Assembly (NCBI GenBank): GCA_900208305.1
Contig: OAPG01000004.1
Span: 372,001-436,000 of the forward strand
Direction of reading: 5' to 3'
DNA length: 64,000 nt
Source: Melanopsichium pennsylvanicum
Lineage: Eukaryota; Basidiomycota; Ustilaginomycetes; Ustilaginales
The notes beneath the pieces are model-generated. The model searched no databases. It had not been told where the DNA came from and was given only the letters and a program-made list of their open reading frames with translations. The first letter of the stretch is position 1; every line of letters begins with the position of its first letter. A program made the position numbers and the translations under genes. Shown piece after piece: positions 14,358 through 62,426 of the stretch.

Positions 14358-15368
14358 TGTCACGGGAGTGGGTCCCAAGGAAGAGGTCTGCGCAGACCAG
14401 AGATGTTGAATCGGCTGAGATCCGGTGGGAGAGCATGTCTCGACGGATCTCAGGGAGATCTGGTGGATATTGGTGGGCTCATGGGATTTAAGGTTAGCAC
14501 AGAACCAAGAAGTTGAATCGGACGAAATCCGGTGAGAGAGCAGGTCTCAACGGATCTCACGGAAATTCGGCAAGTGGCAGTGACTCGCCGGATATCGAAG
14601 GTACCGATGGCAAGGGGAGCATCTGCGATGGCGGCAACCAACGCCACGCCGGAACGACACGTGGGCCGATCGACGCCCAGGGGGGCAATGGAGAGAGAGC
14701 ACGCGGGCGTGCTCGGAAGCACCCTGCCGAAGGACTAGGGGCAGTCTTATCGTGCGGGGGTCCAAGCTCGACGCATGCAGGTCGTACAGTACCGATGGAC
14801 CTCGCACACGATACATATATATAAATACTCTGTTCCCCGCTATCGGATGAGCGGAAGCTCATCCACTCTATCTTATATCTCAGTCACCCATAGTTATCAG
14901 TACGTTGTACTTATCATACTCTTCACACGTTGCACATTGCAATACCATTTATTGCGATCCATATAGTCTGTGTCCCCGTCGGTGAACGGAGAACAACGTA
15001 TAGACGTTGTCGACACCTCAATCGACGCTGTAGCACCTCAACTACAGGCGGAACCTCAACCGCGGGCCTGGCACCACAACCAGTCCCTCATATCTCTACC
15101 GGCAACGACGGCTGAGGTCTAACCCAGCCACCAGCAGTATCCTGTCGACGTCGTGACACTTGCGTCGACCGAGTACCCCGTCCGAGCTTGCCGCGTTACC
15201 TCTGTACGGAGTGTCACCAGCGGTCAGCCGATATCCGTCGAGAGATTGCCACTCGCGGGATTCTCTTCGATATCTGTTGAGGCCAAGCTTAACTGCCGGA
15301 ACTCACTGAAATCCGGCGAGTCGCGTTTTCTCACGGGAATTCGGATCTCTGGCACGCGACCGCTGACA
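14358..15368 (+). repeat. 5' LTR of element A
   Basis: Starts TGTCAC and ends TGACA; its full length is repeated at 29772-30782 at about 97% identity. It contains a TATA box (14816-14825) and the predicted RNA start ATCCACTCTA (14861-14870). Two tandem versions of a roughly 55-bp module with the half-sites TGARATCC and GGATCTCA lie at about 14407-14460 and 14512-14566. Confidence 0.93.
14816..14870 (+). promoter_or_regulatory. LTR promoter of element A and predicted RNA 5' end
   Basis: TATATATAAA at 14816-14825 is followed 36 bases later by ATCCACTCTA at 14861. The latter is the exact complement of 10 bases of the primer-binding site at 15369-15379. This predicts that genomic RNA starts at or just before 14861 and primes its own reverse transcription. 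The same spacing occurs in the LTRs of element B and in the degenerate LTR at 31173-32226. Confidence 0.6.
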
Positions 15369-15379
15369 TTAGAGTGGAT
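15369..15379 (+). other. Primer-binding site of element A (self-priming type)
   Basis: TTAGAGTGGAT directly abuts the 5' LTR. It matches no tRNA 3' end that I recognise, but TAGAGTGGAT pairs perfectly with ATCCACTCTA inside the LTR. Element B has the same 11 bases at the same place. Confidence 0.65.
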
Positions 15380-15408
15380 TGTACAAGCGACGCCCCAAGT
15401 TCACCAAG

Positions 15409-16734
15409 ATGGCCAACTCTGCACTACATGACAGACTCGACCGCCTCATCGCCCTCCTTGAGCAGCAGCAGGTAGACAATGCCGCACTCAAGGCTCGGCT
15501 CGACCAACAGGAGACTCCATCCCCTGGTCGACAAGCTAGGGAGCATGATCTAAGCTCCCCGACCCGTCGAGCCTCGCAGCAGGCGGATGAGTCCTACCTT
15601 GGTGGTCTCGAGACACCCACTCCTGCAACTAGACCACACCCTTGGTCCGTCACCTTCGACATTCTTGACCAACAAGCGTACACCGACCAAGAAAAGTACG
15701 CTACGCCTACTGGACCTCGGTATGTCAAACCGGTGACCCCGGAGGCATGGACCGGCACTGGCAGTGAACAGGACACTCAGCCCCACGCTGCCCTCAAGAC
15801 TCCATTCCCCAAGCTTGACACTTGCGACATCGATATCTTCATTCTCGAGGCCGACGCTTGGTTCAAGGCTAATGGTGTGTACGACCATACTTCGATGATC
15901 CTACACACGGCAGCCCAGCTCGAGGGCACCGCTCGAGAGTGGTGGAAGGGTAAGCTCCGCGTCGATCGGCATCGTCAAGGGATGCTCTTACATGATTGGA
16001 GCCACTTCACCACCCGACTCAGGGAGCTGTACAATCAGCGCAGCGACAGGGTCGATGCCTACAACAAACTCCTAGCGTTGAGACTTATTACCGACACACC
16101 AGGAGCAGCAACGCAACATGTCGAGCAATTCCGAGACCTGGCAGCTCAGTGCCACATGGAGGACCCTGAGTTCGTCATCGACCTCTTCCGAGGGAGCCTT
16201 ACTTGCTCACTTCAGGAGAAGTTCGAGCGTAACCCACCTGAAGACCAGTGGGCCTGGTACCGGGAGGTCAAGGACATTGATCGCCAGCGTATGCGGCATC
16301 AGCAGAATGCTGCCCGCTTCGCCCCAACCCCAGCAATCAGGACTGCTCATACCGAACCTGGCATTCCTCAGAGAACTGGCTCTCGACCGTTGCCCCCTCA
16401 TCTGGCACAGAACCTGCCGGTACGGGAAGCACCACCGAGACCTCGCGACGATCGAAGGGTCGTCCCCGGCCCGACAACATTTAACAGGGACGCTTGTAGG
16501 GTCTGCGGCAAGACCGGGCATTGGCAGCGGAACTGTCCAGACGCCAAGCCAACGGTTTACCCGGCTAGACCATCAGGACCACAGATGCGAGCGCACGTGG
16601 TGTTGGAGTTGGAGAAACCACAGGACAGCTCACCAGAGGAAGGAGACGGAGCTGAAGACCATCGCAAAGACAATGGCGGTCTTGAAGACCACTTTGACCC
16701 CAACCTCTTTGCCGATGATCAAGACGCAGGCGAG
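15409..16734 (+). pseudogene. gag: gag of element A, interrupted by element B
   Basis: The ATG at 15409 opens 442 codons that end exactly at the target duplication of element B. The last 14 codons and stop lie at 24280-24324, after B, and restore a frame of about 456 residues. It encodes the structural protein of the virus-like particle: an N-terminal coiled region with Gln repeats, a capsid-like middle (AREWWKGKLR), and a zinc knuckle CRVCGKTGHWQRNCP (CX2CX4HX4C, near 16495-16540) for RNA binding, then an acidic tail. Apart from the insertion the frame is intact. The restored gag stop TGA (24322-24324) overlaps the pol start. Confidence 0.88.
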
Positions 16735-17824
16735 TGTCAGGGGGCGTTGTGCCAAACTCAAGCTTTGCGCCGAGATCCGCTGAAACCGTCTGTTTTAGCG
16801 TGTTTGAGATTGAGACCTGATAAGCAGGCCGGTGCTATTGTGTTTTGCTATGAGACCTGCTGCGCGACTCTTGAGCTGACTGACCACTGTGAACACTCCG
16901 TTCAGAGGTAATGCGGCTCGTCTGTGTGTTGTAAGACCTTCACGATGCACGAGTGCTCTTGATGCAAGTGTTGGTCACCGTCAGGGACTGCTTCGGATGG
17001 TCTTGAAGCTGTCGTGATAATGAATTGGCTACGGTGGAGGTTCCGTGACCGCGGTTGAGGTTCCGCCTACAGTTGAGGTGCTGTAGTGTCAGTGATGGTG
17101 CTGACAATCGTCAATGAAGCTTGTCTCCTTATACTGAGGAGAACACAGACACTGGATAGCTGCAATACCGTATGATTGCAGCTGCTGACGAGAACTATAT
17201 ACTGAGTAACTGATAACGACTTGTAAAGTAAAGACTGGGTTAATATAAAGTAGAGTGGATGAGTCCCGCTCCTCCACGACTGTAAAGACTGTGTTCTTAT
17301 ATACCTATGGCCCTCCAGGGGCTCCCCTTTGTCCGCTATGACCCTGGTACACCAGAGTATCAATGGCCACCAGAGTTTCGACGTGTCCGCGAGCTTGGGC
17401 CCCGTGCTAATCAATGCCGACTGTCATCAACTATGACAACCACGAGCTTGGGCCCTGTGTTAAACAATGCCGACTGCCCTCAACTATGACAACCACGAGC
17501 TTGGGCCCCGTGTTAAACAATACCAACTGCCAGCAACCATGTCGCCCTTGAGCTTGGGCCCCGTGCTAACCAGTGCTGGCTGTCAGCAACCATGACACAC
17601 ACAGCGGACGGTCCTACATCATGTTGCACCCTTCCATCAGGCCTCCTGTACCAGACGGAGGCCTTGTGTCATCCTTAGTGCCCTGTGTTTCCTCTGCTGG
17701 TTGATACCTGCGTCCAGCGGGCGTCGCACTGATATCGGATGAAACCACGTGTTCTAGCAGACGTCAAACTGAAACCCGATAGAACACAGTGTTTCACCGG
17801 GTTTGAAATCCACCTCCGGTAACA
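16735..17824 (-). repeat. 3' LTR of element B
   Basis: 1090 bp, read here as TGTCAGGGGG...GGTAACA. It is nearly identical to 23185-24274; differences noted are at 16766, 16843, 16855 and one near 16948. It carries the same TATA/ATCCACTCTA arrangement (complement at 17251-17260). Confidence 0.93.
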
Positions 17825-17840: not shown

Positions 17841-17971
17841 AACCGAGCTCCTGCAAGGTAATGAAGTCCGGCGGCGCAGAGAACTTAGCTTCTACCAGCC
17901 TTTATCCTTTGTGTACAACTCTTCTTTTGCAATGGTCTTCCTCATCTATTCCTATATCGCCACCATACAAT

Positions 17972-19362
17972 ATGCCTCGTTCCGCCGCTGCCGCTCCAAC
18001 TCGACGTTCTGCTCGCGTGGCCAGCCGTGTTGCGGTTCTTTGTTCGATGTCCATGCCTTCTGCTCGTTCGACGCCTCCTTGCCGCTGTGCCAGAACTCCA
18101 AACCTCTCGGGTGAGTGTACCCCTTCCAACGATATGGTACTGGACCCGGCTGTGCTTGCCAACGAGCATTGTCTGACATCGGACGCGGCCGTTGGCCTGG
18201 TTTTGTTGGCGCTTAGCCCGGCGCACCGTTCGGCGCCTCTACTCAACTTATCTGGCGAAACTCAAGTGGTCTCCCATCCAGTGGGAGAACCTTTATTTCG
18301 CTACGTCTCCCCACCGGCCTCTCCTCTCGTGGATTCTGCCGTCGAAACTACTCCTGAGCGCGATGCTTGTTGGGCCCGCAAACTGGCCCGCAGCATTACA
18401 CCGTCCCCAATTTTGGACCCAGACGATGTGGTGGACGATTTCCTTCTCGGTTTCAGGCCTAGGTCGGCCTCGGTGGTGTCGGATGCGTATTTGCGCAATG
18501 CTAGGGCTAATCCAGCCTCAGCGATCTCGCCTGAACCTTCGCGGGTGACACCACCTCCTGCCCGAACCCCTACACCGCCACCTCGACAAGAGCGTTACGT
18601 GCCCAATCAACACAATATTTTGGATTGGTGCAACACCTTGTCGCCGGTGGTACTGGTCTGTATGGTGGCACGACGATTCTGGCCTGACGAATGGGATGTA
18701 CCGGCCACTTGGGAACTTCCGGCACGTATGAAACTCAACGTGCTGTCAAGACTTACCGAAGGCAGTGCCCCGTGGCCGACTTGGACTTGTTTGCCTTGTG
18801 CGCGGCTCGACATTCCGTAAGTAGTTTATTGACCTCTCATCGCTATTGTAACCCCAACTGACTCCGCTTCCTTACTTTGATTTGTAGTTGCTTTCCTTCG
18901 ACGTTTGCCGACCCCACCGCTCCACGGGGTCGTGTTTCCCGTAAGTGTGTTCGTTGTGCTGAGGTGGACCATCGCAACTGTGAGCGCGATAGTCCTCGTC
19001 ACCCTTCGCACATCTATCGAGGTGACGCTCCCGCACACCTGTTGGCTCCTGGCGTTCGTGGCGTGGTGAGAGCTCACCTGATTACGCCCGACTCGATGCA
19101 TGGCTTGGGCTCGATCCGGTCTTGGGATCGTACCGTCGATCCTCGCGATCGACGTTGGTTCCTTCGAGTGATGGAGAATGTGTGGTACGCCGACCGTACC
19201 ATTAGTCGTAGACTGGTTATGACAGTCTACGATTTCCTTACTCGCCGAGCTGACCTCCGTTCCGAACGTGAGCCTTTTGAAAGTGTTGCGGTTGCTGGTG
19301 GTGTGCCTGAACCGATTGGCACTCGTATCCCTATCCCCCACGATCCTCCTGTGCCATCTTAA
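17972..19362 (+). CDS. Antisense accessory gene of element B, Cys/His-rich protein of unknown function
   Basis: Two exons (17972-18816, 18888-19362) give 439 residues, on the strand opposite to the element's own gag and pol. The 71-nt intron has donor GTAAGT, branch CTGAC and acceptor TTTGTAG; splicing is in phase 2. The ATG is chosen by alignment with the copy in element A and gives MPRSAAAAPTRRSARVASR. The middle is disordered and Pro/Ser-rich. The conserved core begins at VPNQHNILDW and runs through LTEGSAPWPTW to C-x2-C-x6-C-x18-C-x2-C-x4-H-x2-C, where the intron falls just before the third Cys. The tail has YRGDAPAHLL and REPFESV, also conserved. The Cys/His pattern suggests zinc binding and a nucleic-acid or protein contact; that is inference. 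The ATG lies 148 bases inside the 3' LTR edge, so an antisense promoter in that LTR may drive it. No domain recognised. Confidence 0.75.
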
Positions 19363-19658
19363 TGCAACAGACTCGCCTGTATCATGTTGTAATTGCAATG
19401 TCTTGTTCCTTCTTACCATGTTTGTGTTGAAAAGCCTGTGACGTCGCCAACCGTCGCCTTCCACTTTCAGCCCCAGTGTATGAGATCCGATAGAATTACC
19501 ACTTTAAGCGGGTTTCAACTGAGATCGGCTGCAGAGGGTTGTTTTATCGGATTTCAACTGAATTTGGATAAAACAGCGCGTTTTACTGGGTCTGAGATTC
19601 AAACCTAGCTTTCGCGATGCTTTGTCCCAAGGCAATCCGGGGCGGTTTTATGGTACTT
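19363..19658. other. Gap between the antisense gene and pol of element B, palindromic modules
   Basis: Contains several degenerate copies of the half-sites CGGATTTCAAC and TGARATCC (19480-19600), for example CGGGTTTCAACTGAGATCGG. The same half-sites recur in both LTRs and inside pol. No gene is seen. The two genes converge here and would share 3' ends. Confidence 0.5.
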
Positions 19659-21670
19659 CTACGCCGTCCCCCCCTCCAATCGCTCATACTCCTGGATGAG
19701 TTGGGGGGCATTGACCGCCTCTGCTGGTTCCCATGAAGCTGCTTCCTTGGGATACCCTTTCCACTGGACCAAGTATTCCACCTGGCCTTGTCGCCGACGT
19801 ATGTCAACAATGGCTTCCACCTCGAATTCCAAGTCCTCATCATGCAATGTCGGATATGGTTGTATTGTTGAGCGTCAGTCTCTAGGCGAGTCGGCAGATG
19901 GTAATTGAAATGCTTGAGTACTCCGGCCGTCGTGAAGGCCTCAATGAGCTTGTGGAAAGCGTGTTGGGCATCCTCTGGCAGCTCAAACTTCTTGAACCTC
20001 TCCGTCGGCTTGACCAACGAGGTGAGAGGCCTTGCAATTCGTGCGAAATGAGCAATGAACCTCCTATAGAAGTTGGCAAACCCTAGGAATCGCTGGATAT
20101 CGTGTATAGAGGCTGGCATCGGCCACTCCTGAATGGTTCGTACCTTCTCGGGGTCCATTTCAATCCCTCCTGGCTTAATGATGTACCCCAGGAACTCGAC
20201 CTGATCTGTATGGAAAGTGCATTTTGAGAGCTTGGCAAAGAGCCGGTTGGCTCGAAGCCTCTCCAAGACCTCCCGGACGTGATCGATGTGCTCCTCCTCA
20301 TTGTTGCTGAAGATGAGGAAGTCATCCAGATATACGACAACAAACACGCCAATGATGTCTCTATAGATACTGTTGATCCGAGACTGGAAATGCAATGGTG
20401 CGTTGGCCAACCCGAACGGCATCACCAAGTACTCGTACAATCCGAGCTGAGTACCAAAAGCTGTTTTCCATTCATCGCCGTCTGCGATGCGAACCAGGTT
20501 ATATGCAGCCTTAAGGTCCAGCTTAGTATATACCTTTGCATTACGGAGTAAGAATAGTTGCTCCTCAATGAGGGGCAGCGGCGCTCTATTCTTAATTGTG
20601 ATCTCATTGAGACCACGGTAATTGACGCAGAGACGTAGGCTCCCGTCCTTCTTGGGCACAAACAGGACTGGCGAGCGTGCAGGGCTCTTCGACGGTCAAA
20701 TGAATCCCTTTGCGAGGTTCTCGTCAAGGTACTTGCGCAGTTCCTCCATCTCCTTAGGACCCTTCAGATAGAGCGGGCCTTGAGGAGGTTTTGCTCCCGA
20801 TTCGAGCTCTATCTTGAGGTCGTGTTCGGTCCGGTGGGGTAGCTTGTCTGCTTCGACCTCGTTAAAGACCTCGGCAAGGTCCTGGTAAGGCTCCGGTACC
20901 TGCTCCGGGGGCTTGTCCTTCTCAACTTCCATGTCAACCCCTTTGTCTGCCCCGGTAGGGACAAACCCAAAGGCTGGCAACAACGTTGCCGGAACGTCGA
21001 GAAGCATGAACCCAATGGGTCCATCTTCAACGGCAGCCCTTAGAAGCTGCTTGGCCGATACAAACTCGTGACCGTGGAGTTTGAAGTCCAGAACCGGCAC
21101 CCTGTTCTGGCGGGTTTTGGTTGAAATCCGCTGAACTGACCCGTCCTGTCGGGTCTCGTTTGAAATCCGATAAAACGCGTTGTTTAATCGGGTTTTGTGT
21201 GGGGCCCCGGTTTGTGGAGTAAATTCGCAGGGTTCGGCGTTCGTTGTCATCCCAAACTCCACTCGACCTTCCTCCCAATTGATTGAGGGTCGGAGCTTAC
21301 GCAACTGATCATAGCCTATGATAAGGTCATAATCCGCCGCCTTGGCGACCGCTACTTCCACCTGTCCCAGTGAATAGTGGTCGATACTTACCTGTACAAC
21401 AGCGGTATGGTCTATGTACATCTTGTGACCCGTTACGCCGTGAATCGATCTTGTTTTTGTAGGTTTTGTGGTTATCTTGTGGTCCGAAACAAATGCTTGT
21501 GAAAGTATAGACAAGCCAGCACCGGTATCCGCAAGTATGCGAGCTCCATGGCCCTCAACGGTGCCCTTGAGTTCGAGTACCGAGGAACCCGATGTGGCTG
21601 TGAAACAGAATTGGCAGTCTTGAGCAATGCATTGCGATGGCATAGGTGGTTGTAGGGCAAGACACGCCAT
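19659..21670 (-). pseudogene. pol: pol of element B, nonsense codon and large internal deletion
   Basis: The ATG at 21670 overlaps the gag stop as TGATG. The retropepsin motif ILADTGAGLSILS is intact. A TGA at 20696-20698 replaces the Trp of FIWPSKS, which is present in element A. Reverse transcriptase follows in the same frame, with RLCVNYRGLNE, YEYLVMPFGLANAP and the catalytic VVVYLDDFLIF near 20330. Soon after RLETDA, at the start of RNase H, the sequence jumps to the C-terminal chromodomain (EFEVEAIVDIRRRQGQVEYL, 19847-19659) in another frame. Comparison with element A indicates a loss of about 1.8 kb that removes the rest of RNase H and all of integrase. It cannot make a complete polyprotein. 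Confidence 0.9.
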
Positions 21671-23148
21671 CAGTGTGCTGCCCCACGCTCGTTTCCCTGC
21701 CTGTCGTCAGGATCTCCTTCGGGGTTACTTGTGCCTTCGTCGTCATAGACTGCGGCTTCTAGGTCCAGCTGGGGCTCGCCCTCGTAATTGGCCTCCTCAG
21801 GTTCCTGCTGTATATCCTCCCTGCCTTCCTCATCTGCGATGACAACGTTCGCTCCCACACGGGGTCCTGATGGCCTGACGACCGCATGAGTCGTCTTTTG
21901 AGGACAGTTGTTGGACCAGTGGCCTGGCTTCTTGCAGATGTAGCAAGTGTCACTCCCCACGGTTGTGGGTCCAGCTCGAGCAGGGGTGCGTGGAGCCAGG
22001 TGGGGAGGCGGCACCCGATTGGCAATTGGTATACCCTGAGGGGTATAGCTGGCCCTTGGAGCTTGCTGGACTGGCTTGGGCGTGGCCTGGAGTCCTCCAA
22101 CGGGTCTGTTAACGGCCATCGGTGGGCCAGATGGCATGTACGCCGGCCTGGACGACTCCGTTGGTGGAATCGAGTGCCATCGTTGGGCTTGCTGGTTTAC
22201 CACCCGCTGCCGGTCGATGGCTTCAACCTTGGCGTACCACTCCCAAAGCGATGGGGGTGGGCTTCGCTCGAACTTCTCCTGCAGGCTGCGAGAGAGTCCC
22301 GAGCGGAAGTAGTACTTTGCGAGCTCCTGGTCGCCGATGTTGGCTCGGCCTTCAAGGTCCCTAAACCGTTCAAGGTACCTGGTGGCCGTGCCAGGACGGT
22401 TGTCCTGCATACGCAGCTTCTGAAGCTCCGTGATGGCCTCAAGCCTCAGGTCTCGCTGTCCATATTGTTCCTTGAGTCTCTGTGTGAACATATTCCAGTC
22501 GTTGAAGAGGATGCCTTGCTGTTGGCGGTCGGCCCTTAGCTTAGACTTCCACCATTCTCGAGCACTGCCCTCGAGGAACTGACTGGTGTAAGCGACCATC
22601 TTACCATGGTCCCGGATACCCTTCATCCTGAACCACCACTCAGCCTCGATGAAGAACATGTCCATATCCTTGAGGTCCATCTTCGGGAACGGGGTCTTGA
22701 GTTCCGTTGGCCACTTGGCCTCCTCGTCGTCTTTCGACTGCGGGGCTGACTCTCCAGGCGGCCTACTTACCACTGCTTCGGTGGCCAATCCTAAGGCCGG
22801 GGGGAGTTCCGTGGGCGCAACCTGTCGTCTAGCCCCGGTTGGGGTAGAGTAGAGCTCGTACAAGCGAGCTCTGTTGCCCTTGTCGTTGTCTGGCCGGTTT
22901 TGGGCCGTAGGCGTCGGTGTCTCCGGCTCTGGGCGGTATGATACCTCCAGGCGGACGAGCACACGTTCCACCAACGACTGGAGTCTGTCGATGCTCTGGT
23001 CCGTCCTCTTCTGTCGGGCTTCAACTTCCTCGATGTGATTCTTGAAGTCTTTCATCTTTGTCAGTAATTGACCCGTGGTGTCATAGAGCGTCTGGAACAG
23101 GGGTCGTCCCGTCTGCTCCGGAGTCCGGGGTCGGGATTCGTCTGTCAT
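21670..23148 (-). CDS. gag: gag of element B
   Basis: 492 residues from the ATG at 23148, the first after the 5' LTR (an upstream in-frame ATG lies within the LTR). The frame is intact. It has a coiled N-terminal part, a capsid-like core (SAREWWKSKLRADRQQQG) and the zinc knuckle CYICKKPGHWSNNCP, which binds the genomic RNA, then an acidic tail. Its stop TGA (21672-21670) shares its last A with the pol ATG (UGAUG), so pol may be made by termination and re-initiation. It is clearly homologous to gag of element A but diverged, so the two are different families or old subfamilies. Confidence 0.9.
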   Translation of the reverse strand: MTDESRPRTPEQTGRPLFQTLYDTTGQLLTKMKDFKNHIEEVEARQKRTDQSIDRLQSLVERVLVRLEVSYRPEPETPTPTAQNRPDNDKGNRARLYELYSTPTGARRQVAPTELPPALGLATEAVVSRPPGESAPQSKDDEEAKWPTELKTPFPKMDLKDMDMFFIEAEWWFRMKGIRDHGKMVAYTSQFLEGSAREWWKSKLRADRQQQGILFNDWNMFTQRLKEQYGQRDLRLEAITELQKLRMQDNRPGTATRYLERFRDLEGRANIGDQELAKYYFRSGLSRSLQEKFERSPPPSLWEWYAKVEAIDRQRVVNQQAQRWHSIPPTESSRPAYMPSGPPMAVNRPVGGLQATPKPVQQAPRASYTPQGIPIANRVPPPHLAPRTPARAGPTTVGSDTCYICKKPGHWSNNCPQKTTHAVVRPSGPRVGANVVIADEEGREDIQQEPEEANYEGEPQLDLEAAVYDDEGTSNPEGDPDDRQGNERGAAH

Positions 23149-23173
23149 ATTGGCGAGGGGCACTACTTGAACG

Positions 23174-23184
23174 ATCCACTCTAA
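23174..23184 (-). other. Primer-binding site of element B (self-priming type)
   Basis: On the element strand TTAGAGTGGAT directly follows the 5' LTR. It is identical to the site in element A and complementary to ATCCACTCTA in the LTR (23710-23701). Confidence 0.65.
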
Positions 23185-24274
23185 TGTCAGGGGGCGTTGT
23201 GCCAAACTCAAGCTTCGCGCCGAGATCCGCTGAAACCGTCTGTTTTAGCGTGTTTGAGATTGAGACCTGATAAGCAGGCCGGTTCTATTGTGTTTCGCTA
23301 TGAGACCTGCTGCGCGACTCTTGAGCTGACTGACCACTGTGAACACTCCGTTCAGAGGTAATGCGGCTCGTCTGTGTGTTGTAAGACCTTCACGATGCAC
23401 AAGTGCTCTTGATGCAAGTGTTGGTCACCGTCAGGGACTGCTTCGGATGGTCTTGAAGCTGTCGTGATAATGAATTGGCTACGGTGGAGGTTCCGTGACC
23501 GCGGTTGAGGTTCCGCCTACAGTTGAGGTGCTGTAGTGTCAGTGATGGTGCTGACAATCGTCAATGAAGCTTGTCTCCTTATACTGAGGAGAACACAGAC
23601 ACTGGATAGCTGCAATACCGTATGATTGCAGCTGCTGACGAGAACTATATACTGAGTAACTGATAACGACTTGTAAAGTAAAGACTGGGTTAATATAAAG
23701 TAGAGTGGATGAGTCCCGCTCCTCCACGACTGTAAAGACTGTGTTCTTATATACCTATGGCCCTCCAGGGGCTCCCCTTTGTCCGCTATGACCCTGGTAC
23801 ACCAGAGTATCAATGGCCACCAGAGTTTCGACGTGTCCGCGAGCTTGGGCCCCGTGCTAATCAATGCCGACTGTCATCAACTATGACAACCACGAGCTTG
23901 GGCCCTGTGTTAAACAATGCCGACTGCCCTCAACTATGACAACCACGAGCTTGGGCCCCGTGTTAAACAATACCAACTGCCAGCAACCATGTCGCCCTTG
24001 AGCTTGGGCCCCGTGCTAACCAGTGCTGGCTGTCAGCAACCATGACACACACAGCGGACGGTCCTACATCATGTTGCACCCTTCCATCAGGCCTCCTGTA
24101 CCAGACGGAGGCCTTGTGTCATCCTTAGTGCCCTGTGTTTCCTCTGCTGGTTGATACCTGCGTCCAGCGGGCGTCGCACTGATATCGGATGAAACCACGT
24201 GTTCTAGCAGACGTCAAACTGAAACCCGATAGAACACAGTGTTTCACCGGGTTTGAAATCCACCTCCGGTAACA
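23185..24274 (-). repeat. 5' LTR of element B
   Basis: 1090-bp partner of 16735-17824. In the element's orientation it starts TGTTACCGG and ends CCCTGACA. It contains the promoter elements listed separately, and a GGGCCC(A)AGCTC motif repeated four times between about 23840 and 24010 at roughly 50-70 base spacing. Confidence 0.93.
23701..23753 (-). promoter_or_regulatory. LTR promoter of element B and predicted RNA 5' end
   Basis: On the - strand TATATAAG (23753-23746) is followed by ATCCACTCTA starting at 23710, about 43 bases after the TATA box. The spacing matches element A and the degenerate LTR. Confidence 0.55.
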
Positions 24275-24279
24275 GCGAG
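24275..24279. repeat. Target site duplication of element B, right copy
   Basis: GCGAG here and at 16730-16734. Removing B plus one copy rejoins gag of element A in frame, which confirms the boundaries. Confidence 0.95.
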
Positions 24280-24320
24280 CCCTACCACGAGGACGAGGGA
24301 AACGACCTTGGAGCGATGCA

Positions 24321-27300
24321 ATGATGGCATGCATCGCTCTAAGACCGCCTTCGCCATCACCTTGTATATGTCAAGATTGTTCATTATGTTTCTCTGCAGC
24401 TTCCGGTGCCTCAGTACTTGAGCTAGCAGGTACGGTCAACCACCATCCTGCTAGCATTCTCGCCGACACCGGCGCTGCATTGTCTATAGTTTCAGCTCCG
24501 TTTGTTTGCAAGTACTCGATAACCACAAAACCCATAAAAAACAGAACCGTACACGGAGTGACCGGACATTCCCTCACAATCACGAGCGCTGCTGACGTCA
24601 ACGTAGTCATAGGAGGACAACACCTAGGGATGCTCAAGGTCGCCGTCGCTGACGCTAGCGACTACGATTTCATCCTGGGGTACGATGAACTACGACGCCT
24701 ACAGCCAAGGGTCCATTGGGATACTGGACAGCTCGATTTTGGATAACCCAACGAGATCCGGTCAGACGCGGTCGTTCAAGGGATTTCACCAAAATCCGCC
24801 GAGACCGGCCGATCTGCCGAATCTCGAGCAAACTTAGTAGTACATGGCTACAAGTTTGTCGACGCCAACGAGCTCGTTCAGGCGGCACTACGGGATGGCC
24901 CCATAGGGGTCATGCTAATCAGCGCTCCTCCGACGTCGCTCCCGTCGTTTGGCTTTGTTCCCATGGGAGGCGACAAAGGCATAGAGATGGAAACGACACT
25001 AGAAGAGCCTCCCACTGCCGTCGAAATCCCAGCCCCATACTACTCCCTCAGGGATGTATTTGACGAGGTCAAAGCGGACAAGCTTCCCCCTCACACAAAG
25101 CACAACTTGCACATTGAGCTACTACCCAGTTCGACGCCACCTCAAGGTCCGCTATATCTCAAGGGACCTAAGGAGATGGCCGAGCTGAGGAAGTACCTCG
25201 AAGAGAATCTTGAGAAGGGATTCATTTGGCCCTCAAAGAGCCTGGCGCAATCCCCCGTCCTCTTCGTGCCTAAGAAGGACGGCGGCCTGCGACTCTGCGT
25301 AGACTACCGCGGTCTCAACGAGGTCACGGTTAAGAACCGAGCACCACTGCCCTTAATCGAGGAGCAGCTGTTCCTCCTACAAAAAGCGAAGATCTATACC
25401 AAGCTGGACCTAAAGGCAGCTTACAACTTGGTTAGGATTGCCGACGGGGACAAATGGAAAACTGCGTTTGGAACTCAACTCGGACTGTATGAGTATCTGG
25501 TCATGCCATTCGGATTGGCAAATGCGCCCGCGCACTTCCAATCGCTCATCAACACCATCTACCGCAACATCATCGGCGTATACGTGGTAGTATACCTTGA
25601 CGACTTCCTGATCTTCAGCGACAACGAGAAGGAACACATCAAGCATGTCAAGACGGTGCTCAGTAGGCTCAAGGTATGGCGGTTATTTGCCAAACTCTCG
25701 AAGTGCGTGTTCCATACCGATACTGTTGAGTTCCTTGGCTACATCATCAAGCCGTCAGGTATCGAGATGGACCCCGACAAGATCAGGACTATCAAGGAAT
25801 GGCCCATGCCGGAGTCTATACACGACATCCAACGTTTCCTCGGGTTTGCCAACTTCTATCGCAGATTCATCTCTCATTTCGCACGTATAGCGAGACCGCT
25901 CACTTCCCTCGTTAAGCCCACAGAGCGATTCAAGAAGTTCGACCTCCCTGATGACGCTCGCGCTGCTTTCCACAAGCTGGTGGATATGTTCACCACCGCT
26001 GGGGTTCTCAAACACTTCGACTACCATCGTCCTACCCGGTTGGAAACGGATGCAAGCAACTTTGCTCTCGCTGGAGTACTCAAACAAGAGCACGACGGAC
26101 GATGGCACCCAATAGCATTCTACTCGCGCAAGATGGCATCGGCGGAGAAGAACTACAAGATCCATGACAAGGAACTCCTTGCTGTTGTCGTCTGTCTCAA
26201 CCACTGGCGGCACATGCTTGCAGGACTACCTAGTCAGCTCATTATTCTCACTGATCATGAGGCGCTCAAATACTTCAAGTCTCAGCGGAAGATCACAGGT
26301 CGGCAGGCTCGATGGTCAGTGTTACTCGCTGACTTCGACTTCGTACTCCAATACAGACCGGGAGATAAAGCAGGAGAGCCAGATGCGTTGACACGACGAA
26401 GTGATATGCAGCCGACCACAGAAGAAGACCTACACAACGTCCGACAGCTGTTACCGGCACGAGTATTTGCTGAGGATTTTGAAAACCGCCGAGTGGACTC
26501 AACTCGGCGGATTTCACCGAAATTTGCCAAGAAAGAGCAACTCGCCGAATCTCAAATAAATATGCTAAAGCCAACGATGTCCGATATCGCGGAGGGAGGG
26601 CTGGTCCAACTCGTAAAGACTTTCCAGCCGCTCGATGCCGAGCTCGCAGAGCTTCATCAGAAGCAACCTTTCAAAGTTAGAAATGGCCTGTGGTATCGCG
26701 ACGGTCGGCTAGTGGTGCCGCGAGTCACATTACCAGGTAAGAAAGGTCAACGCAACACTCGGAGTGCCGCCAAAGCAAAGGATCGCTTGCTCTCGGTGGA
26801 GCACCTGAGGTACATGGTAATGTCCCAATGCCACGACAGCGCTACCGCTGGCCATGCTGGTCAAGACGCTACCCTCGAGCTCACAAGGCGGCATTATTGG
26901 TGGCCAAATATGGCGGCATGGGTTGCTGACTATGAAGCAAGCTGCCCAGTGTGCGCTCGATATAAAGCACCGCAACACCGACCATATGGCCTTTTGCAGC
27001 CGCTGTCGACGCCGTCAAGACCCTGGAATTCCATCTCAATGGATTTCATTGAAGGTTTACCTAAATTGGAGGGGTATGACTCGATCTTCGTAGTGGTTGA
27101 CCGGTTGACCAAATATGCCATCTTAACCCCAACGTACAAGACAATAACGTCGGAGCAGACGGCAAAGATGCTCAAAGACCAAGTTATGACCCGTTTTGGG
27201 GTACCAGAGCACATTGTCTCAGACCGCGGCCGACAATTCGTCTCGGCGGCATGGAAAGAGTTCACCGACAAGCTGGTCATCCACCACTCGCTCAGCACAG

Positions 27301-28085
27301 CCTACCACCCACAGACGGACGGGCAAACGGAACAAGTCAATCAAGTTGTCGAGCAGTACCTCCGTATGTACTGCAACTACGAGCAGGACAACTGGGTAAC
27401 CTGGCTGCCAATGGCCGAGTTTGTTTACAACAACACGGTCCACAGCAGCATAGGAGTCTCGCCTTTCTTTGCTTGCTACGGGTGGAATCCAAAGTCACAC
27501 CCCAATCTCCCAGAACAAGTCGGTGTGCTCGACCCCAAGAGGAAAGAGTTTGCCACCCGAAGAAAAGAATTTACGGCGTATCTACAGGAGCAAATCAGGT
27601 ACGCTCAAAGCCGAACCGTTGAGCAATATAACCGCAAACAAAGGGACATCGAGTTCAAAGTTGGAGACATGGTCTACGTCAACCGAAAGAACTGGAAGAC
27701 AGCTCGACCCAGTCCCAAACTCGACACAAGATTAGCAGGCCCGTTCCCCATCCTCGAATGAATCGGCAGAAGAGCATACCAGCTCCAACTCCCAACAAGT
27801 TTGCGCGTACACGACGTTTTCCATGTCTCGATGCTTGAGCCTCAAAGGGCAAGCTCACTCCCACAGCGCTCCACACTCAAAGTCACGCCGCCCCTACCGG
27901 ACGACACTCTAGAATTCGAGGTAGAGGCTATTGTGGGAAAGCGAAAACAGGGTAGGCAAGTGCAGTACAAAGTCCAATGGAGGGGCTACCCCAAGGAGGC
28001 AGCCTCGTGGGAACCAACAGACTGTCTCAACTGCCCAGACCTCATCCGGGAGTATGAGGAATCGGCGGGGGGACGGAGACACTAA
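24321..28085 (+). pseudogene. pol: pol of element A with two nonsense codons
   Basis: The frame of about 1,250 codons starts at ATGATG (24321), overlapping the gag stop. Domains in order: retropepsin (ILADTGAALSIVS, about 24460); reverse transcriptase (RLCVDYRGLNE, catalytic YLDDFLIF near 25592); RNase H (RLETDAS near 26040); integrase with its HHCC zinc domain (HAGQDATLELTRRHYWWPN ... CPVC, 26800-26960) and DDE core (SMDFIEGLP, IVSDRGRQFV, QTDGQTEQVNQ); and a C-terminal chromodomain (EFEVEAIVGKRKQGRQVQYK, from about 27913), which marks chromoviruses and is thought to guide insertion to marked chromatin. The frame is broken by TAA at 24744-24746 (protease/RT linker) and TGA at 27759-27761 (before the chromodomain; the context suggests CGA to TGA). 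Otherwise it is continuous, so decay is at an early stage. Confidence 0.92.
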
Positions 28086-28511
28086 GCCGAAGAGAATCCT
28101 GCGACTGCGAGCCGCGATGCATGCCATCACAGGAGAGTAAGATGGTGAGAAGCAGCTCGACAAGGACGATGTTGAGCGGCAAAGGTAGAAGGTTGCAGGA
28201 ATCGAGATCCGGACAATGACCCCGACTCAGGGAATTTCCACAAAATCCGCCGAGTACTGCAGAATTCAACGGATCTCAGAAAAAATTAAAAAAATTGCGG
28301 GGTAACGAGAACCTAAAAGTCACGAAATTCGCCAAGGAATGCATGATCCAAAGGATCTCAGGCCCTAACGGGCGACGCAAGTCGACAAGTATATTTCTCA
28401 GAGTCGTCGCACCTGTTGCACACCAGAAGTCACACAATCAAGCTCACACTAGGTTCAATGGGTAACAAGGCACTGCCATTGCAACAAGTCGACACAGCCA
28501 GCGGGCACAGA
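28086..28511. other. Gap between pol and the antisense gene of element A, palindromic modules
   Basis: No gene. It contains AATCCGCCGAG...AACGGATCTCAG (28238-28282) and AAATTCGCCAAG...AAAGGATCTCAGG (28325-28363), two degenerate copies of the same module found in the LTR and within pol. Pol and the antisense gene converge here. Confidence 0.5.
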
Positions 28512-29670
28512 CTACTCCGCCGACTTGGGGGCTGACGAAGGCCCAGGCACCGAAGAAGGCTCGAGAGCCTCGAATGGCGAGCGCATAGACCGCACTTGCC
28601 GCTGACGATCGAAGTACTCCTCGATCATCGTCAGCACCGGGACTCGCCGACTACAAGGCAAGGCAGACCAAATGATGCGCATTGCATACGCCCAATGGGG
28701 GTCCACCACACCATCCGAGTCACGGTCGATCCCACGTACCTCTCCCAATCCGCGACCTCCCGCTCCCGTGACGTGAGCTCGCTCGACGCCACGCTCGCCT
28801 CGATGCAGATGGCGAGGAGGAGCGTCGCCAGCGTATACCGTCGTTGGCAACGCCCTCGCATTCCGCACGCACTTCTTGTGGCCGCCAAGATGGCAGTGCA
28901 CACAAGCGCGCGGAGTTCTGCCCTTGCCACCGGCAGAAAGTACGTCAGCAAAGGCCGACGCAAAACAACTGGGACAAAAAAGGGGAGAACCACGGTCAGC
29001 AATGCGTATCAAACGGACAGCAAGTATCAAACGGAGAAGGGGGCAGTAGTACTTACGGTATACCAAGCTTGGCGCAGCGGGCGCATTGCCAGCTCGGCCA
29101 AGGCATGCAGCCCTCGGTCAGTTGAAGGAGGACCAGACGATGCAGCCAATCGGCCGTCACGGAACCCTCCGATACCTCCCAAGTAGGGGGCCAGGCCTCG
29201 CACGCCACAAATACCAGCAACACCGGAGCAATAAAAGACTCCGCCCACAGCGCGATCTCAAGGTAGTTGGGCACACGAGGCCCAACGAGCGGAGCGACAG
29301 GGTCCTCCCCGGCCTCGCTAACCCTCCCCACAACCGACTCCTCCACCTCCATTGCCTCCAGCCGCTCCTCCTCCTCCCCCGCGGCATCGTTCCCCAGGAA
29401 CAACGGTTCTAGTGGTCGCGGCGTCAACCGCAACGCGACGAGCTGCTCGGCAGCAACAATCTCGAGAGGCTGCTTGCCAGCAGCAGAGGACAACGTAGCT
29501 GTGGCCTCAAGGCCGACAGCTGAAGGGTTTGCCACTGCCCGAGCGGCAGGATTTCGTTCACGAAGCCTGGCGCTACGGCGCACAGGCTCTTCTGCCCTGA
29601 GGGCAGGCATTTGTGTCGACGCTGGTCGCGATGACGCAGCGGAAGGGGCGGTATTGGTGGTGCTCGACAT
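28512..29670 (-). CDS. Antisense accessory gene of element A, Cys/His-rich protein of unknown function
   Basis: Two exons (29670-29057, 28968-28512) give 356 residues, opposite in strand to element A's gag and pol. The 88-nt intron (GTAAGT ... TTTTTTGTCCCAG) sits at the same codon and phase as in element B's copy, just before the third Cys of C-x2-C-x6-C-x20-C-x2-C-x4-H-x2-C. The start MSSTTNTAPSAASSRP leads to a RRSARLRERN motif shared with B (RRSARVASR). The core VPNYLEIALW ... LTEGCMPWPSW, then YAGDAPPRHL and RSPFEAL, aligns along its length with the B copy but is far more diverged than pol. The frame is fully open although pol in the same element has two stops. The ATG is 101 bases inside the 3' LTR edge. 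Zinc binding is inferred from the Cys/His pattern; function is unknown. Confidence 0.75.
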
Positions 29671-29759
29671 CTTGACAGTTGGAAAGAGCTGTTGGTGGAA
29701 GAACAAGTCGGGGAAACATCCGCCGACCCTATTTAAGCCTCAACGGAGCTCGGCTCTCG

Positions 29760-29771
29760 AAGGGGGGGTAG
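29760..29771 (+). other. Polypurine tract of element A
   Basis: AAGGGGGGGTAG abuts the 3' LTR, as in element B. Confidence 0.7.
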
Positions 29772-30782
29772 TGTCACGGGAGTGGGTTCCAAGGGAGAGG
29801 TCTGCGCAGACCAGAGATGTTGAATTGGCTGAGATCCGGTGGGAGAGCATGTCTCAACGGATCTCAGGGAGATCTGGTGGATATTGGTGGGCTCATGGGA
29901 TTTAAGGTTAGCGCAGGACCGAGAAGTTGAATCGGACAAAATCCGGTGAGAGAGCAGGTCTCAACGGATCTCACGGAAATTCGGCGAGTGGCAGTGACTC
30001 GCCGGATATCGAAGGTATCGATGGCAAGGGGAGCATCTGCGACGGCGGCAACCAACGCCACGCCGGAACGACACGTGGGCCAATCGACGCCCAGGGGGGC
30101 AATGGAGAGAGAGCACGCGGGCGTGCTTGGAAGCACCCTGCCAAAGGACTAGGGGCAGTCTTATCGTGCGGGGGTCCAAGCTCGACGCACGCAGGTCGTA
30201 CAGTACCAATGGACCTCGCACACGATACATATATATAAATACTCTGTTCCCCGCTATTGGATGAGCGGAAGCTCATCCACTCTATCTTATATCTCAGTCA
30301 CCCATAGTTATCAGTACGTCGTACTTATCATACTCTTCACACGTCGCACATCGCAATACCATTTATTGCGATCCATATAGTCTGTGTCCCCGTCGGTGAA
30401 CGGAGAACAACGTATAGACGTTGTCGACACCTCAATCGACGCTGTAGCACCTCAACTACAGGCGGAACCTCAACCGCGGGCCTGGCACCACAACCAGTCC
30501 CTCATATCTCCACCGGCAACGACGGCTGAGGTCTAACCCAGCCACCAGTAGTATCCTGTCGACGTCGTGACACTCGCGTCGACCAAGTACCCCGTCCGAG
30601 CTTGCCGCGTTACCTCTGTACGGAGTGTCACCAGCGGTCAGCCGATATCCGTCGAGAGATCGCCACTCGCAGGATTCTCTTCGATATCCGTTGAGGCCAA
30701 GCTTAACTGCCGGAACTCACTGAAATCCGGCAAGTCGCGCTTTCTCACGGGAATTCGGATCTCTGGCACGCGACCGCTGACA
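29772..30782 (+). repeat. 3' LTR of element A
   Basis: 1011-bp partner of 14358-15368. It ends TGACA at 30782 and the sequence then switches abruptly to unrelated CpG-poor DNA. The predicted RNA start ATCCACTCTA is at 30275-30284. Confidence 0.93.
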
Positions 30783-31172
30783 TGGGGTTGCTCACAAACC
30801 CTGTTGCAAGTATTACTTAGTCTGCGCAATAGCTGTTGAAGCAATGGCTCCACTTGGTTCATATTGCACTTAGAGCATTTCACCAACCAGCCAGCAAAAT
30901 TTGTTGGTAGATTTCAAATGTCCCCACTGTGTTAGTTTCAAATTTCCCCACTTTCTTAGCATTTCCCATGCAATGCATCAAGCAAATCTTTCTTGCTAAC
31001 TTCCCTTCACAGAAGACCAGCCAAATATTTTCCATGCCACAGTAGGAACAGGAGGATACTTACATTGGGATACAACAACCCAACAATGGGTCATGCCCAT
31101 GGGGCCTGAGCACCAATCAGGTCCAGTGTGTGTTGGTGTGAGCAGAGCAATGGCCACAAGCAGGTAATGAGG
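30783..31172. other. CpG-poor non-coding DNA
   Basis: 390 bases between element A and the degenerate LTR, rich in TG and CA and poor in CG. No ORF or known motif. It resembles the CpG-poor DNA left of element A (13860-14357), so both are probably old mutated repeats. Confidence 0.4.
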
Positions 31173-32226
31173 TGTTACAGGGCACAAAACACCAAGCCGG
31201 ATAAAACTCCTAGTTTTATCAGGTTTCAGTTTGATTTCCAATAAGATAGGGAGATCTAGCCAAACTTGGTTGGAATCTGCCAAAATGCTGTTGATAAGGA
31301 ACAGGGACTATCAAGTAACTTGGTAAGGCATGCTAGGTTTCCAGCTGGTATGGAAGGCCTAGTCAGATAGCGTAGCATGTAAGAGGCTCAGATGCTGTCA
31401 GTCACTGACTCAGGAAGTCAGACTTGATAAGCATGGGGCTGTTAAGGCTGTAGGGTCTAGATACCGCGGGCGGCTACAGCCGGGATGGAGGCTACGGGTA
31501 CGGAGAGGTCGTAGGCGGGGGCGACACAGGCGGTCGGGGGTCAGAGCACACTACTGCGTTGCTATAGAGCTAACTAAGTAATACATGCGACGAGGTCCGG
31601 AGGCAACCTCATGTCAGGCGGGGGCGGGGTGGTAAGGTACAGGAGCTATCGGTCACTTCCCACCGCGGCGTTACAATGTTAGGTTGCCGACGGTCGTATT
31701 CTACGTACGGAGGGGCCAGCCGCGGTTGGGCGGTAGGAGGATCGTGTCAGGCCGACCGCTCCGCTGCGAGGGGTCCGGAGAGGGTCGGTCGGGGCCCGAT
31801 CACGACGATCGCTCAATCGGGAGGGGGGCCGAGCACCCCCTCTTTGGACTCCGGTTGGTAGGCACTAACAGGGGCCCAGGCTTGAATACAGTGCAATAAG
31901 AGGATTTAGGAGGAAGATAAGGAGCAAGACAGCCATAGCATATAAGGGTATTGTTGTGCCAGTCATGGAGGAGCAGGGGCTTATCCACTCTACTATTCAT
32001 ACTCTTAGTCTTTACCTTACAAGTTGTTCCCAACATCTCCATATCTAAGTATATTGTCAATCACTACAATCATATGGTATTGCAGCACCCCAGTGCCTGT
32101 GTCCTCCTCATCCAAAGGAGTTCCACATCACTAACAATTGTCAGCACCTCTTCTGACACTTCTGATAGAAAATCCAGTCTCATTGTATTTCAAACTGGTA
32201 CTTGGGTCTGGCACACTGGTCCCTGA
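31173..32226 (+). repeat. Degenerate LTR related to element B
   Basis: Starts TGTTAC and ends CCTGACA, the termini of the B LTR in its sense direction. The stretch 31939-32170 aligns clearly with the B LTR: TATAAG at 31941, ATCCACTCTA at 31983, and then the run that includes CATATGGTATTGCAGC. The copy is heavily mutated and CpG-poor, except for a CpG-rich patch at about 31441-31860 that has no match in the B LTR. No internal coding region is attached, so it is a solo LTR. The 5-base flanks do not match. Confidence 0.7.
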
Positions 32227-61602: not shown

Positions 61603-61870
61603 GGTGGACAGCAGAGGTGAGAGTAGGCCGAGAAAGATGATCTGGTCAAGGTGTTGCTCGAGTCTCTTTTGAGGATGCTATCCAGGTGTTTGCCCGCAAG
61701 ATGGTACCACAAGCAAATTGTTTAGTGTATGTACTGTGAAGAAGAGTGAATGATGGTGAGAGAAGGATATTGGAGAGCGAGATGGTTGTGAAGAAGCTCA
61801 AGGCAATCGGGATGGTCGGAGGAGAAACGTGAGATTGGCAACAGAGTCGACACCAAACCTGTTTGGCGAT

Positions 61871-62426
61871 AGACCGGGCTTCGGAACTTAGCCGACGGTA
61901 CGGATCTCCTAGCGCTCCTACCGGATAGGATCTGCCTGTAGATCACAAAAGATATCACAGGGGCCGACGTAAAGGCCATGATGGAAGGCGGCATCGGATC
62001 GCAACGTACCGCTTGGGCAACTCAGATAGTCTAGCAAGAGTCGCTCTTTGCTGAACTTGGCATTTCACTGTACAGTAATTTACAGTCTACTGCAGACTCG
62101 ACCACCGAAACAGTCAGTATTGTAATTGGGCGGGGGAAGGAGGGGGACAGACCGGGCTTCGGAAATCAGCCGACGGTACGGATCTCCTAGCGCTTCTAGC
62201 GGATAGGATGTGCCTGTAGATCACAAAGGATCCCATAGGGACCGACGTAAAGGCCATGATGGAAGGCGGCATCAGATTGCAACGTACCGCTTGGGCAACT
62301 CAGATAGTCTAGCAAGAGTCGCTCTTTGCTGAACTTGGCATTTCACTGTACAGTAATTTACATTCTACTGCAGACTCGACCACCGAAATGTTCAGTATTG
62401 TAATTGGGTGGGGGTAGGAGGGGGGG
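61871..62426 (+). repeat. Tandem duplication, two copies of 278 bp
   Basis: Copy one is 61871-62148 and copy two 62149-62426, in the same orientation. They agree at most positions (roughly 93-95% by eye); differences are scattered single bases. Both start AGACCGGGCTTCGGAA and end in a G-rich run. The pair lies upstream of the orphan type I membrane protein (start 61602), so it may belong to its promoter. No ORF is shared by the copies. Confidence 0.9.

What the first reader, a model, noticed from the sequence alone, without database searches (positions are those of the whole stretch)
17972..29670. Two LTR retrotransposons each carry a homologous, spliced, antisense gene for an unknown Cys/His-rich protein
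Elements A and B both have, between pol and the 3' LTR, a gene on the opposite strand (28512-29670 minus in A; 17972-19362 plus in B). The two predicted proteins align through VPN...W, LTEG..PWP.W, a C-x2-C-x6-C-x18-20-C-x2-C-x4-H-x2-C array, Y.GDAP and R.PFE. Each has one intron at the same codon and phase, immediately before the third Cys. The reading frames, intron site and location in non-identical elements make chance unlikely. A spliced antisense gene near the 3' LTR is reminiscent of the antisense genes of some complex retroviruses, but I know of no described counterpart in fungal Ty3/gypsy elements. Its role (regulator of copy number, capsid cofactor, silencing suppressor, integration-site factor) is open.
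Basis: partly seen in the sequence, partly recalled or inferred. Interest (0 to 1): 0.9.

Follow-up and report, generated by a model that had tools for sequence, protein, structure and literature searches.

The report
Variable backwards gene in fungal retrotransposons
Jumping elements in a smut fungus carry an extra gene written backwards next to their right end; it is a real, selected protein gene that exists in several old versions on otherwise nearly identical elements, which hints at a regulator or self-recognition factor, although its function is untested.

Summary
Two nested Ty3/gypsy elements in a smut genome (Melanopsichium pennsylvanicum by contig match) each carry, between pol and the 3' LTR, a homologous antisense gene with one phase-2 intron at the same codon. 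It is a genuine protein gene: in 30 family A copies exon lengths change only by multiples of three while the intron varies freely, splice sites are kept, and dN/dS (29 copies) is 0.29, lowest in the predicted strand and frame. The core is six cysteines; the histidine is not conserved. Named relatives came only from Ustilago and Melanopsichium. The claim of no fungal counterpart is wrong: Boty of Botrytis carries the antisense gene brtn. Unexpectedly, the gene is a diversity island: copies differ by about 9% there but 2-4% in LTR, gag, RT, pol end and spacer. The excess lies in discrete old allele groups, not mutation rate, and gene and backbone trees reject each other. In family B, 20 near-identical places share a deletion of the gene, so it is not needed in cis. 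Best reading: a trans-acting accessory regulator; allele-specific self-regulation is possible but unproven. New variant of a known kind.

The parts
14358..15369 (+). 5' LTR of element A
   Evidence: 97.1% identical to 29772-30783
29772..30783 (+). 3' LTR of element A
   Evidence: begins TGTCACGG just after a G-run
15379..16734 (+). gag of element A, its end interrupted by the insertion of element B (coordinates approximate)
   Evidence: Retrotrans_gag and zf-CCHC matches; in other copies the match ends at residue 452, the rest of this frame belongs to the LTR of B
24912..27761 (+). pol of element A (RT, RNase H, integrase), stopped early in this copy; other copies continue into a chromodomain ending near window 28086
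29057..29670 (-). antisense gene A, exon 1 (aa 1-204 and two bases of codon 205)
28969..29056 (-). antisense gene A, intron (88 nt, GTAAGT...CCCAG, phase 2)
   Evidence: AG in 34 of 34 copies, GT in 33 of 34
28512..28968 (-). antisense gene A, exon 2 (last base of codon 205 to stop)
29730..29736 (-). TATA-like TTAAATA about 60 nt upstream of the gene A start codon; candidate antisense promoter (inference)
   Evidence: present in 22 of 22 copies examined
29762..29768 (+). G-run at the 3' LTR edge, probable polypurine tract of element A
   Evidence: next to the LTR start TGTCAC
17972..18816 (+). antisense gene B, exon 1
18817..18887 (+). antisense gene B, intron (71 nt, GTAAGT...TTGTAG, phase 2)
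18888..19362 (+). antisense gene B, exon 2
16735..17824 (-). 3' LTR of element B (B lies on the minus strand)
   Evidence: 99.6% identical to 23185-24274; GCGAG repeat on both flanks of B
23185..24274 (-). 5' LTR of element B
21670..23211 (-). gag of element B
19583..20659 (-). part of pol of element B (RT and start of RNase H; integrase missing)
17967..19337 (+). stretch of element B (nearly the whole antisense gene) that is absent from the gene-less lineage of family B; the right end is approximate (BLAST ends 19326 and 19338)

Best explanation
It is an element-encoded accessory gene. Shown by sequence: a spliced protein gene, convergent with pol, present whole or in part in 34 of 35 family A copies, under purifying selection for its protein, and split into discrete old allele groups that have recombined onto a nearly uniform element backbone. 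Inferred: it is transcribed from its own promoter in the short stretch between the polypurine tract and the start codon, so it can be made when sense transcription is off; the mRNA is spliced; the product is a nuclear, zinc-binding protein of six cysteines with a basic, disordered N-terminus; and it acts in trans to set the expression or mobility of its own element family. The allele structure fits a factor whose success depends on which version it carries (specific self-regulation, or escape from a host factor), but it can also arise if old versions were merely picked up by recombination.
For: Protein gene: dN/dS 0.292 over 29 copies, bootstrap 0.226-0.368; domain aa 133-340 0.217 (0.153-0.303). 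The predicted strand and frame have the lowest ratio of the six in each exon, and the frame shifts across the intron as predicted. Exon lengths in 30 copies differ only by 0, -9, -21 or +21 nt while the intron has 13 different lengths from 70 to 93 nt. C196, C199, C206, C230, H235 and C238 are unchanged in 34 of 34 copies and C227 in 33. Own promoter: TTAAATA in 22 of 22 copies, in a stretch that varies little (0.5-4.9% per 20-nt window) down to about -21. Trans action: 20 places of family B share one junction that removes the gene, at 99-100% identity, so gene-less elements spread. Allele lineages: mean pairwise distance gene exons 0.085, third positions 0.137, intron 0.119, against LTR 0.029, spacer 0.040, pol 3' end 0.031, 20 copies; in 5 copies RT 0.026, gag 0.023, gene 0.097. 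Non-CpG transversions show the same excess. Pairs with the same allele (15 of 210) differ in the gene (0.019) about as much as in LTR and flank (0.017, 0.027). Gene and flank trees reject each other, AU p 7e-8 and 1e-5.
Against: No RNA evidence. No fold or family match: both AlphaFold models are poor (pLDDT 57 and 54), no structure match with E<=0.001, no Pfam match better than E 0.065 among 44 family proteins. Nuclear location, zinc binding and regulation rest on motifs only. The alleles differ mostly at silent sites and share the same core, which is weak support for a specificity locus; aa 31-60 have dN/dS 1.0 but with a wide interval (0.54-2.10). Of 34 aligned copies 18 lack an intact frame. 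In family B most full-pol copies have spread without the gene.
Confidence: 0.45

Rival explanations
1. The protein counters host silencing (RNAi or chromatin), protecting the element family; allele diversity reflects an arms race with the host.
For: The host has RNAi parts: one Piwi match, RdRP matches at three loci, and DNA methylase matches. Convergent sense and antisense transcription would itself make double-stranded RNA (inference).
Against: No match to any described family. No excess of amino-acid change: dN/dS is 0.29. A gene-less lineage spread, though protection in trans is possible.
Confidence: 0.2
2. The protein is a structural or integration cofactor needed at a step of transposition (particle, nuclear import, target choice).
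For: Purifying selection as strong as in the pol end: 0.281 against 0.363 in the same 20 copies. Whole or in part in 34 of 35 family A copies with full RT (read).
Against: Twenty near-identical gene-less places of family B show it is not needed in cis. A cofactor gives no reason for deep allele lineages.
Confidence: 0.15
3. The diversity island is a neutral relic: old element subfamilies recombined, and the gene segments happen to retain older ancestry, with no selection for variety.
For: Gene and flank trees conflict, so recombination took place. Ty1 gag of yeast was exchanged between subfamilies and species (PMC7055915, abstract and section 8). Alleles differ mostly at silent sites.
Against: The excess ends abruptly at about -20 and fades, unevenly, over about 300 nt past the stop; LTR, gag, RT, pol end and spacer are all far more uniform, so neutral retention would have to hit only this gene in many separate copies.
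Confidence: 0.35
4. Only the antisense RNA matters; the protein frame is incidental.
For: Antisense RNAs inhibit Ty1 and may restrict Tf2 (PMC7175516, passages).
Against: dN/dS, frame-keeping indels, kept splice sites and kept cysteines.
Confidence: 0.02
5. The island reflects a locally higher mutation rate (for example CpG decay or transcription-linked damage).
For: Exons are G+C-rich with more CpG columns, 29% against 18-23% in LTR, spacer and pol end. Singletons at third positions and intron (0.143) exceed those in LTR, spacer and pol end (0.058-0.083).
Against: Excess is as large at non-CpG transversions: 0.020 in exons against 0.003-0.008. Same-allele pairs show no excess. Over all exon sites singletons are similar (0.095), while shared variants are 0.190 against 0.071-0.098.
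Confidence: 0.03

Closest known systems
brtn of Boty-like Ty3/gypsy elements (Botrytis cinerea, Sclerotinia); Zhao et al. 2011 Virology, seen only as a citation in PMC8365987 and in PMC7264820 section 5
   Same: An additional antisense gene in a fungal Ty3/gypsy element, between pol and the 3' LTR
   Different: Splicing and allele structure of brtn are unknown to me.
Plant antisense additional ORFs: Grande gene23, RIRE2, Retand ORF4/TRP28, PvRetro13 (PMC7264820 sections 5, 7, 8; PMC11963269 passages)
   Same: Position, orientation, presence in most copies, own upstream promoter in Grande, suspected nuclear or regulatory role
   Different: Other protein families (no TRP28 match here); the word intron does not occur in the main text of PMC11963269
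Ty1 copy number control factor p22 and the Ty1/Ty1' gag alleles (PMC7055915 abstract and section 8; PMC4599808 title and start of abstract in a search listing)
   Same: Diverged gene alleles exchanged by recombination on a related backbone, in a gene that encodes a self-acting control factor
   Different: p22 is a sense-strand piece of Gag; here it is a separate antisense gene and Gag is uniform among the copies compared. Whether it restricts anything is untested here.
HTLV-1 HBZ and other retroviral antisense genes (PMC11963269 passages; PMC7264820 section 8)
   Same: Antisense, near the 3' LTR, promoter apart from the sense one
   Different: No sequence relation was tested; the HTLV antisense promoter lies inside the 3' LTR, here a TATA-like site lies just outside it
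Fungal Zn(2)Cys(6) cluster (PF00172)
   Same: Six cysteines in a similar C-x2-C-x6-C ... C-x2-C-x7-C order (family spacing recalled)
   Different: No match near the Pfam cut-off; best E 2.7, in 5 of 44 members

Membership tests
Antisense additional ORF between pol and 3' LTR (aORF-3R class) | lies between pol and the 3' LTR, antisense | tested here: met
Antisense additional ORF between pol and 3' LTR (aORF-3R class) | present in most copies with protein-level conservation | tested here: met
   Family A: of 35 copies with full RT, 28 hold a nearly whole gene, 6 a part, 1 none; dN/dS 0.29. In family B it is not met: 6 loci hold the gene, whole or broken, and 20 junction places lack it
Antisense additional ORF between pol and 3' LTR (aORF-3R class) | transcribed in antisense | not testable with these tools
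   no RNA data
brtn of Boty | sequence homology to BRTN | tested here: inconclusive
   brtn sequence not held; the profile search found only Ustilago, Melanopsichium and unnamed records at E<=10, but it scored only the 7996 candidates sharing most words
Fungal Zn(2)Cys(6) cluster PF00172 | six cysteines in the cluster order | tested here: met
   the six positions are kept in 33 or 34 of 34 genomic copies; 18 of 79 public gene models hold the full pattern, the other 61 are cut, spliced elsewhere or changed
Fungal Zn(2)Cys(6) cluster PF00172 | Pfam score over the curated cut-off | tested here: not met
DUF3716 | Pfam match | tested here: not met
   no match at E<=1 for A and B; not among the 10 families listed at E<=10 for 44 members
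Plant TRP28 (PF04195) | Pfam match | tested here: not met
Chromovirus-type Ty3/gypsy element | integrase followed by a chromodomain | tested here: met
   RT, RNase H, integrase in window A; SH3_Tf2-1 and Chromo (E 2.1e-15) in the pol end of a family A copy, L021
Ty1-like copy number control | allele-specific reduction of mobility in trans | not tested
   needs a mobility assay

The most novel reading that the evidence does not exclude
The antisense gene is a polymorphic self-recognition or immunity locus of a retrotransposon family: each allele makes a trans-acting protein that restrains elements carrying its own version, rare versions escape, and negative frequency-dependent selection keeps many versions alive on a recombining, otherwise uniform backbone, like the immunity regions of temperate phages.
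Probability: 0.13. Interest if true: 0.85.

Novelty: new variant of a known kind. Interest (0 to 1): 0.6.

Why it matters
Antisense extra genes are known in plant LTR elements and in Boty-like fungal elements, but their roles are unknown. Here is a clear case of a spliced, selected antisense gene in basidiomycete elements, with three things that make its role testable: a candidate promoter motif kept in every copy examined, a natural lineage that lost the gene and still spread, and old allele groups on a nearly uniform backbone. If the alleles are kept by selection, retrotransposons can carry a variable self-regulation locus, a link to copy number control in yeast and to phage immunity.

Tried and rejected

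Higher mutation rate as cause of the diversity island: judged unlikely. Antisense RNA only: rejected.

A second antisense frame of 196 codons in a third gypsy family (RT 55-57% identical to A) is open, with no internal stop, in 36 of the 38 places matched over (nearly) its full length, but dN/dS on 8 copies is 0.57 on that strand and 0.42 in a frame of the other strand, so it is not shown to be a gene. A first attempt at that count was spoiled by one misaligned piece, L085, which I dropped.

The N-terminal 262 residues of the Ustilago model P0029 match only three proteins, itself included; no conclusion.

Rows dropped: L068, L069, L010, L026, L023 from dN/dS (partial or frame-shifted); L068, L069, L010, L026 from the length count; L016, L025, L003 of 23 from the pol comparison; L003 and L016 of 22 from the sliding profile, site counts and trees; L016 from the allele-pair table. 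Copies with stops stayed in; stop codons were skipped. The 34 aligned copies are those with most of the gene; one search lists 41 places, fragments included.

Limits: no RNA reads; no Ustilago genome DNA was reachable, so that the Ustilago relatives lie in LTR elements is inferred from copy number (cluster P0030 has 75 member sequences), not shown. Genome searches score only the best candidates, so copy counts are lower bounds. Nine paper searches ran; no listed title or abstract start describes this gene, but I opened only six papers, in part, and most subscription papers are not held.
Full report
What is there. The window lies in a 21.1 Mb genome of 61 contigs. Contig lengths printed for MEPE_ proteins (for example 679549, 565576, 312315) match those of this genome, so it is Melanopsichium pennsylvanicum, a smut fungus. 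Element A (plus strand) runs from LTR 14358-15369 to LTR 29772-30783. Element B (minus strand, LTRs 16735-17824 and 23185-24274) is inserted near the end of A's gag, with a GCGAG target repeat. Both are Ty3/gypsy elements by RT, gag and, for A, integrase matches; family A pol ends in a chromodomain (on the pol end of copy L021). Window A has an early pol stop and window B lacks the integrase.

The gene. Each element has a gene convergent with pol, between pol and the 3' LTR. The intron splits the same codon in phase 2, just before the third cysteine.

Is it a real protein gene? Family A has 35 full RT copies at 95-100% identity. Reading together, downstream of RT and on the other strand 28 of the 35 carry a nearly whole gene, 6 a part of it (two lack the start, one is split by an insertion, three keep only a piece), and the copy at C3:7648 has none. 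In 34 aligned copies the acceptor AG is kept in 34, the donor GT in 33, and 16 have an intact spliced frame. In the 30 copies without large loss, exon lengths differ by 0, -9, -21 or +21, while the intron takes 13 lengths between 70 and 93. Pooled dN/dS is 0.292 (29 copies), 0.217 in the domain and 0.397 in the N-terminus; of the six frames in each exon the predicted one is lowest, 0.331 in exon 1 and 0.242 in exon 2. In the same 20 copies the pol end with its chromodomain gives 0.363. This is protein-coding selection on the antisense strand and across the intron.

The protein. N-termini of A and B share a basic RRSAR stretch; a nuclear role is inference. A profile search found 61 proteins at E<=10 among 7996 candidates scored, from Ustilago hordei, U. 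nuda, U. tritici, U. bromivora, two Ustilago without species name, Melanopsichium, or records without a name. Nine public models of 79 end exactly at the G-[IVT]-P before the intron, as an unspliced reading would; five of the nine are named Ustilago. This agrees with the same donor in Ustilago. Other public models use other donors with the same acceptor, so the annotated models disagree. No known family or fold was found.

A diversity island. Along the 3' end of 20 copies the mean distance per 100-nt window is 1-5% in the LTR (10% in the outermost window, which takes in 17 nt of unrelated flanking DNA), 6-14% over the gene, and 2-5% after it. Over sites: LTR 0.029, exons 0.085, third positions 0.137, intron 0.119, spacer 0.040, pol 3' end 0.031. 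Synonymous distance is 0.193 in the gene and 0.058 in the pol end of the same 20 copies. In five copies RT is 0.026 and gag 0.023 while the gene is 0.097. Excluding CpG and counting transversions only, the excess remains (0.020 in exons, 0.030 at third positions; LTR 0.004, pol 0.003, spacer 0.008). The step at the start codon side is sharp, at about -20; on the other side it fades, unevenly, over some 300 nt.

Why it is probably not mutation rate. Of 210 pairs, 15 have gene distance under 3%; in these the gene (0.019) is like the LTR (0.017) and flank (0.027). In the other 195 the gene is 0.092 while LTR and flank are 0.029 and 0.030. The split was made on gene distance itself, so the low gene value is partly by choice; the point is that the flanks do not follow it. 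Clustering at 5% gives 11 allele groups in 22 copies. The gene and flank trees reject each other (AU 7e-8 and 1e-5). So old alleles were moved among nearly uniform backbones. Against a strong selective story: alleles differ mainly at silent sites and keep the same core. Singletons at third positions and in the intron are also somewhat raised.

A natural deletion. Family B has 22 full RT copies at 81-82% identity to A, four cut at the same point (78%) and further fragments. Twenty places hold one shared junction that removes nearly the whole gene (window 17967 to about 19330), at 99-100% identity; two of them lie 1.6 kb apart on C10 and are probably one locus, and one goes with a cut RT copy on C1. 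Six loci keep the gene, some of them broken, and one diverged relative lies at C23:281578-282396. A gene-less lineage therefore spread recently; the gene is not needed in cis.

Promoter. Between the G-run at the LTR edge and about -21 the sequence varies little (0.5-4.9% per 20-nt window), about as the LTR does, and holds TTAAATA in 22 of 22 copies. I infer an antisense promoter there; no transcript was seen.

Known relatives. Antisense extra genes between pol and the 3' LTR are a described class in plants, and Boty of Botrytis carries brtn. Grande gene23 has an upstream promoter and a nuclear product. Retand elements carry TRP28 antisense genes (passages). The closest match for the allele pattern is Ty1, where diverged gag alleles were exchanged by recombination and set copy number control. 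The U. hordei retrotransposon paper PMC9603552 (passages) does not use the word antisense in its main text, and for its ancestor reconstructions kept only elements with all domains on one strand.

Judgement. Works like: a retroviral or plant-type accessory antisense gene, perhaps with allele-dependent self-regulation. Member of: the antisense additional-ORF class by position, orientation and conservation; not shown to be homologous to any named one. The host has RNAi genes, so a silencing-counter role stays open.

Noticed in passing
L073 (G000:C18:309300-313300) 199-786 minus, and 42 places: A third gypsy family (RT 55-57% to A) has a 196-codon antisense frame open in 36 of 38 places matched over (nearly) full length, unrelated to the gene studied as far as one search shows; selection test inconclusive.
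   Followed up: partly
window 31440-31870: About 430 bp that recur at 98-99% in L062, L065 and L073 beside RT of the third gypsy family; probably its LTR.
   Followed up: partly
L073 2517-3605 plus: An open frame that looks to me like a tyrosine recombinase beside an RNase H-like stretch, as in DIRS-type elements (recognised by eye, not searched).
   Followed up: no
G000:C22:253554-262582 (L062, L065): A family B antisense gene copy appears split by insertion of an element of the third gypsy family.
   Followed up: partly
P0029, P0047 (Ustilago proteins): A variant of the antisense protein with a different N-terminus of about 260 residues (P0029 cluster has 15 member sequences); that N-terminus matches only three proteins. 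Possible fusion or gene-model artefact.
   Followed up: partly
window 17334-17647 and 23784-24097: Imperfect tandem repeats of 53 nt inside the LTRs of element B.
   Followed up: no
window 61865-62424: A 278-nt unit repeated twice head to tail at 93%.
   Followed up: no
P0062, P0067, P0070 (public records): Members of this family carry misleading public names such as monocarboxylate permease and Mig1 protein.
   Followed up: no
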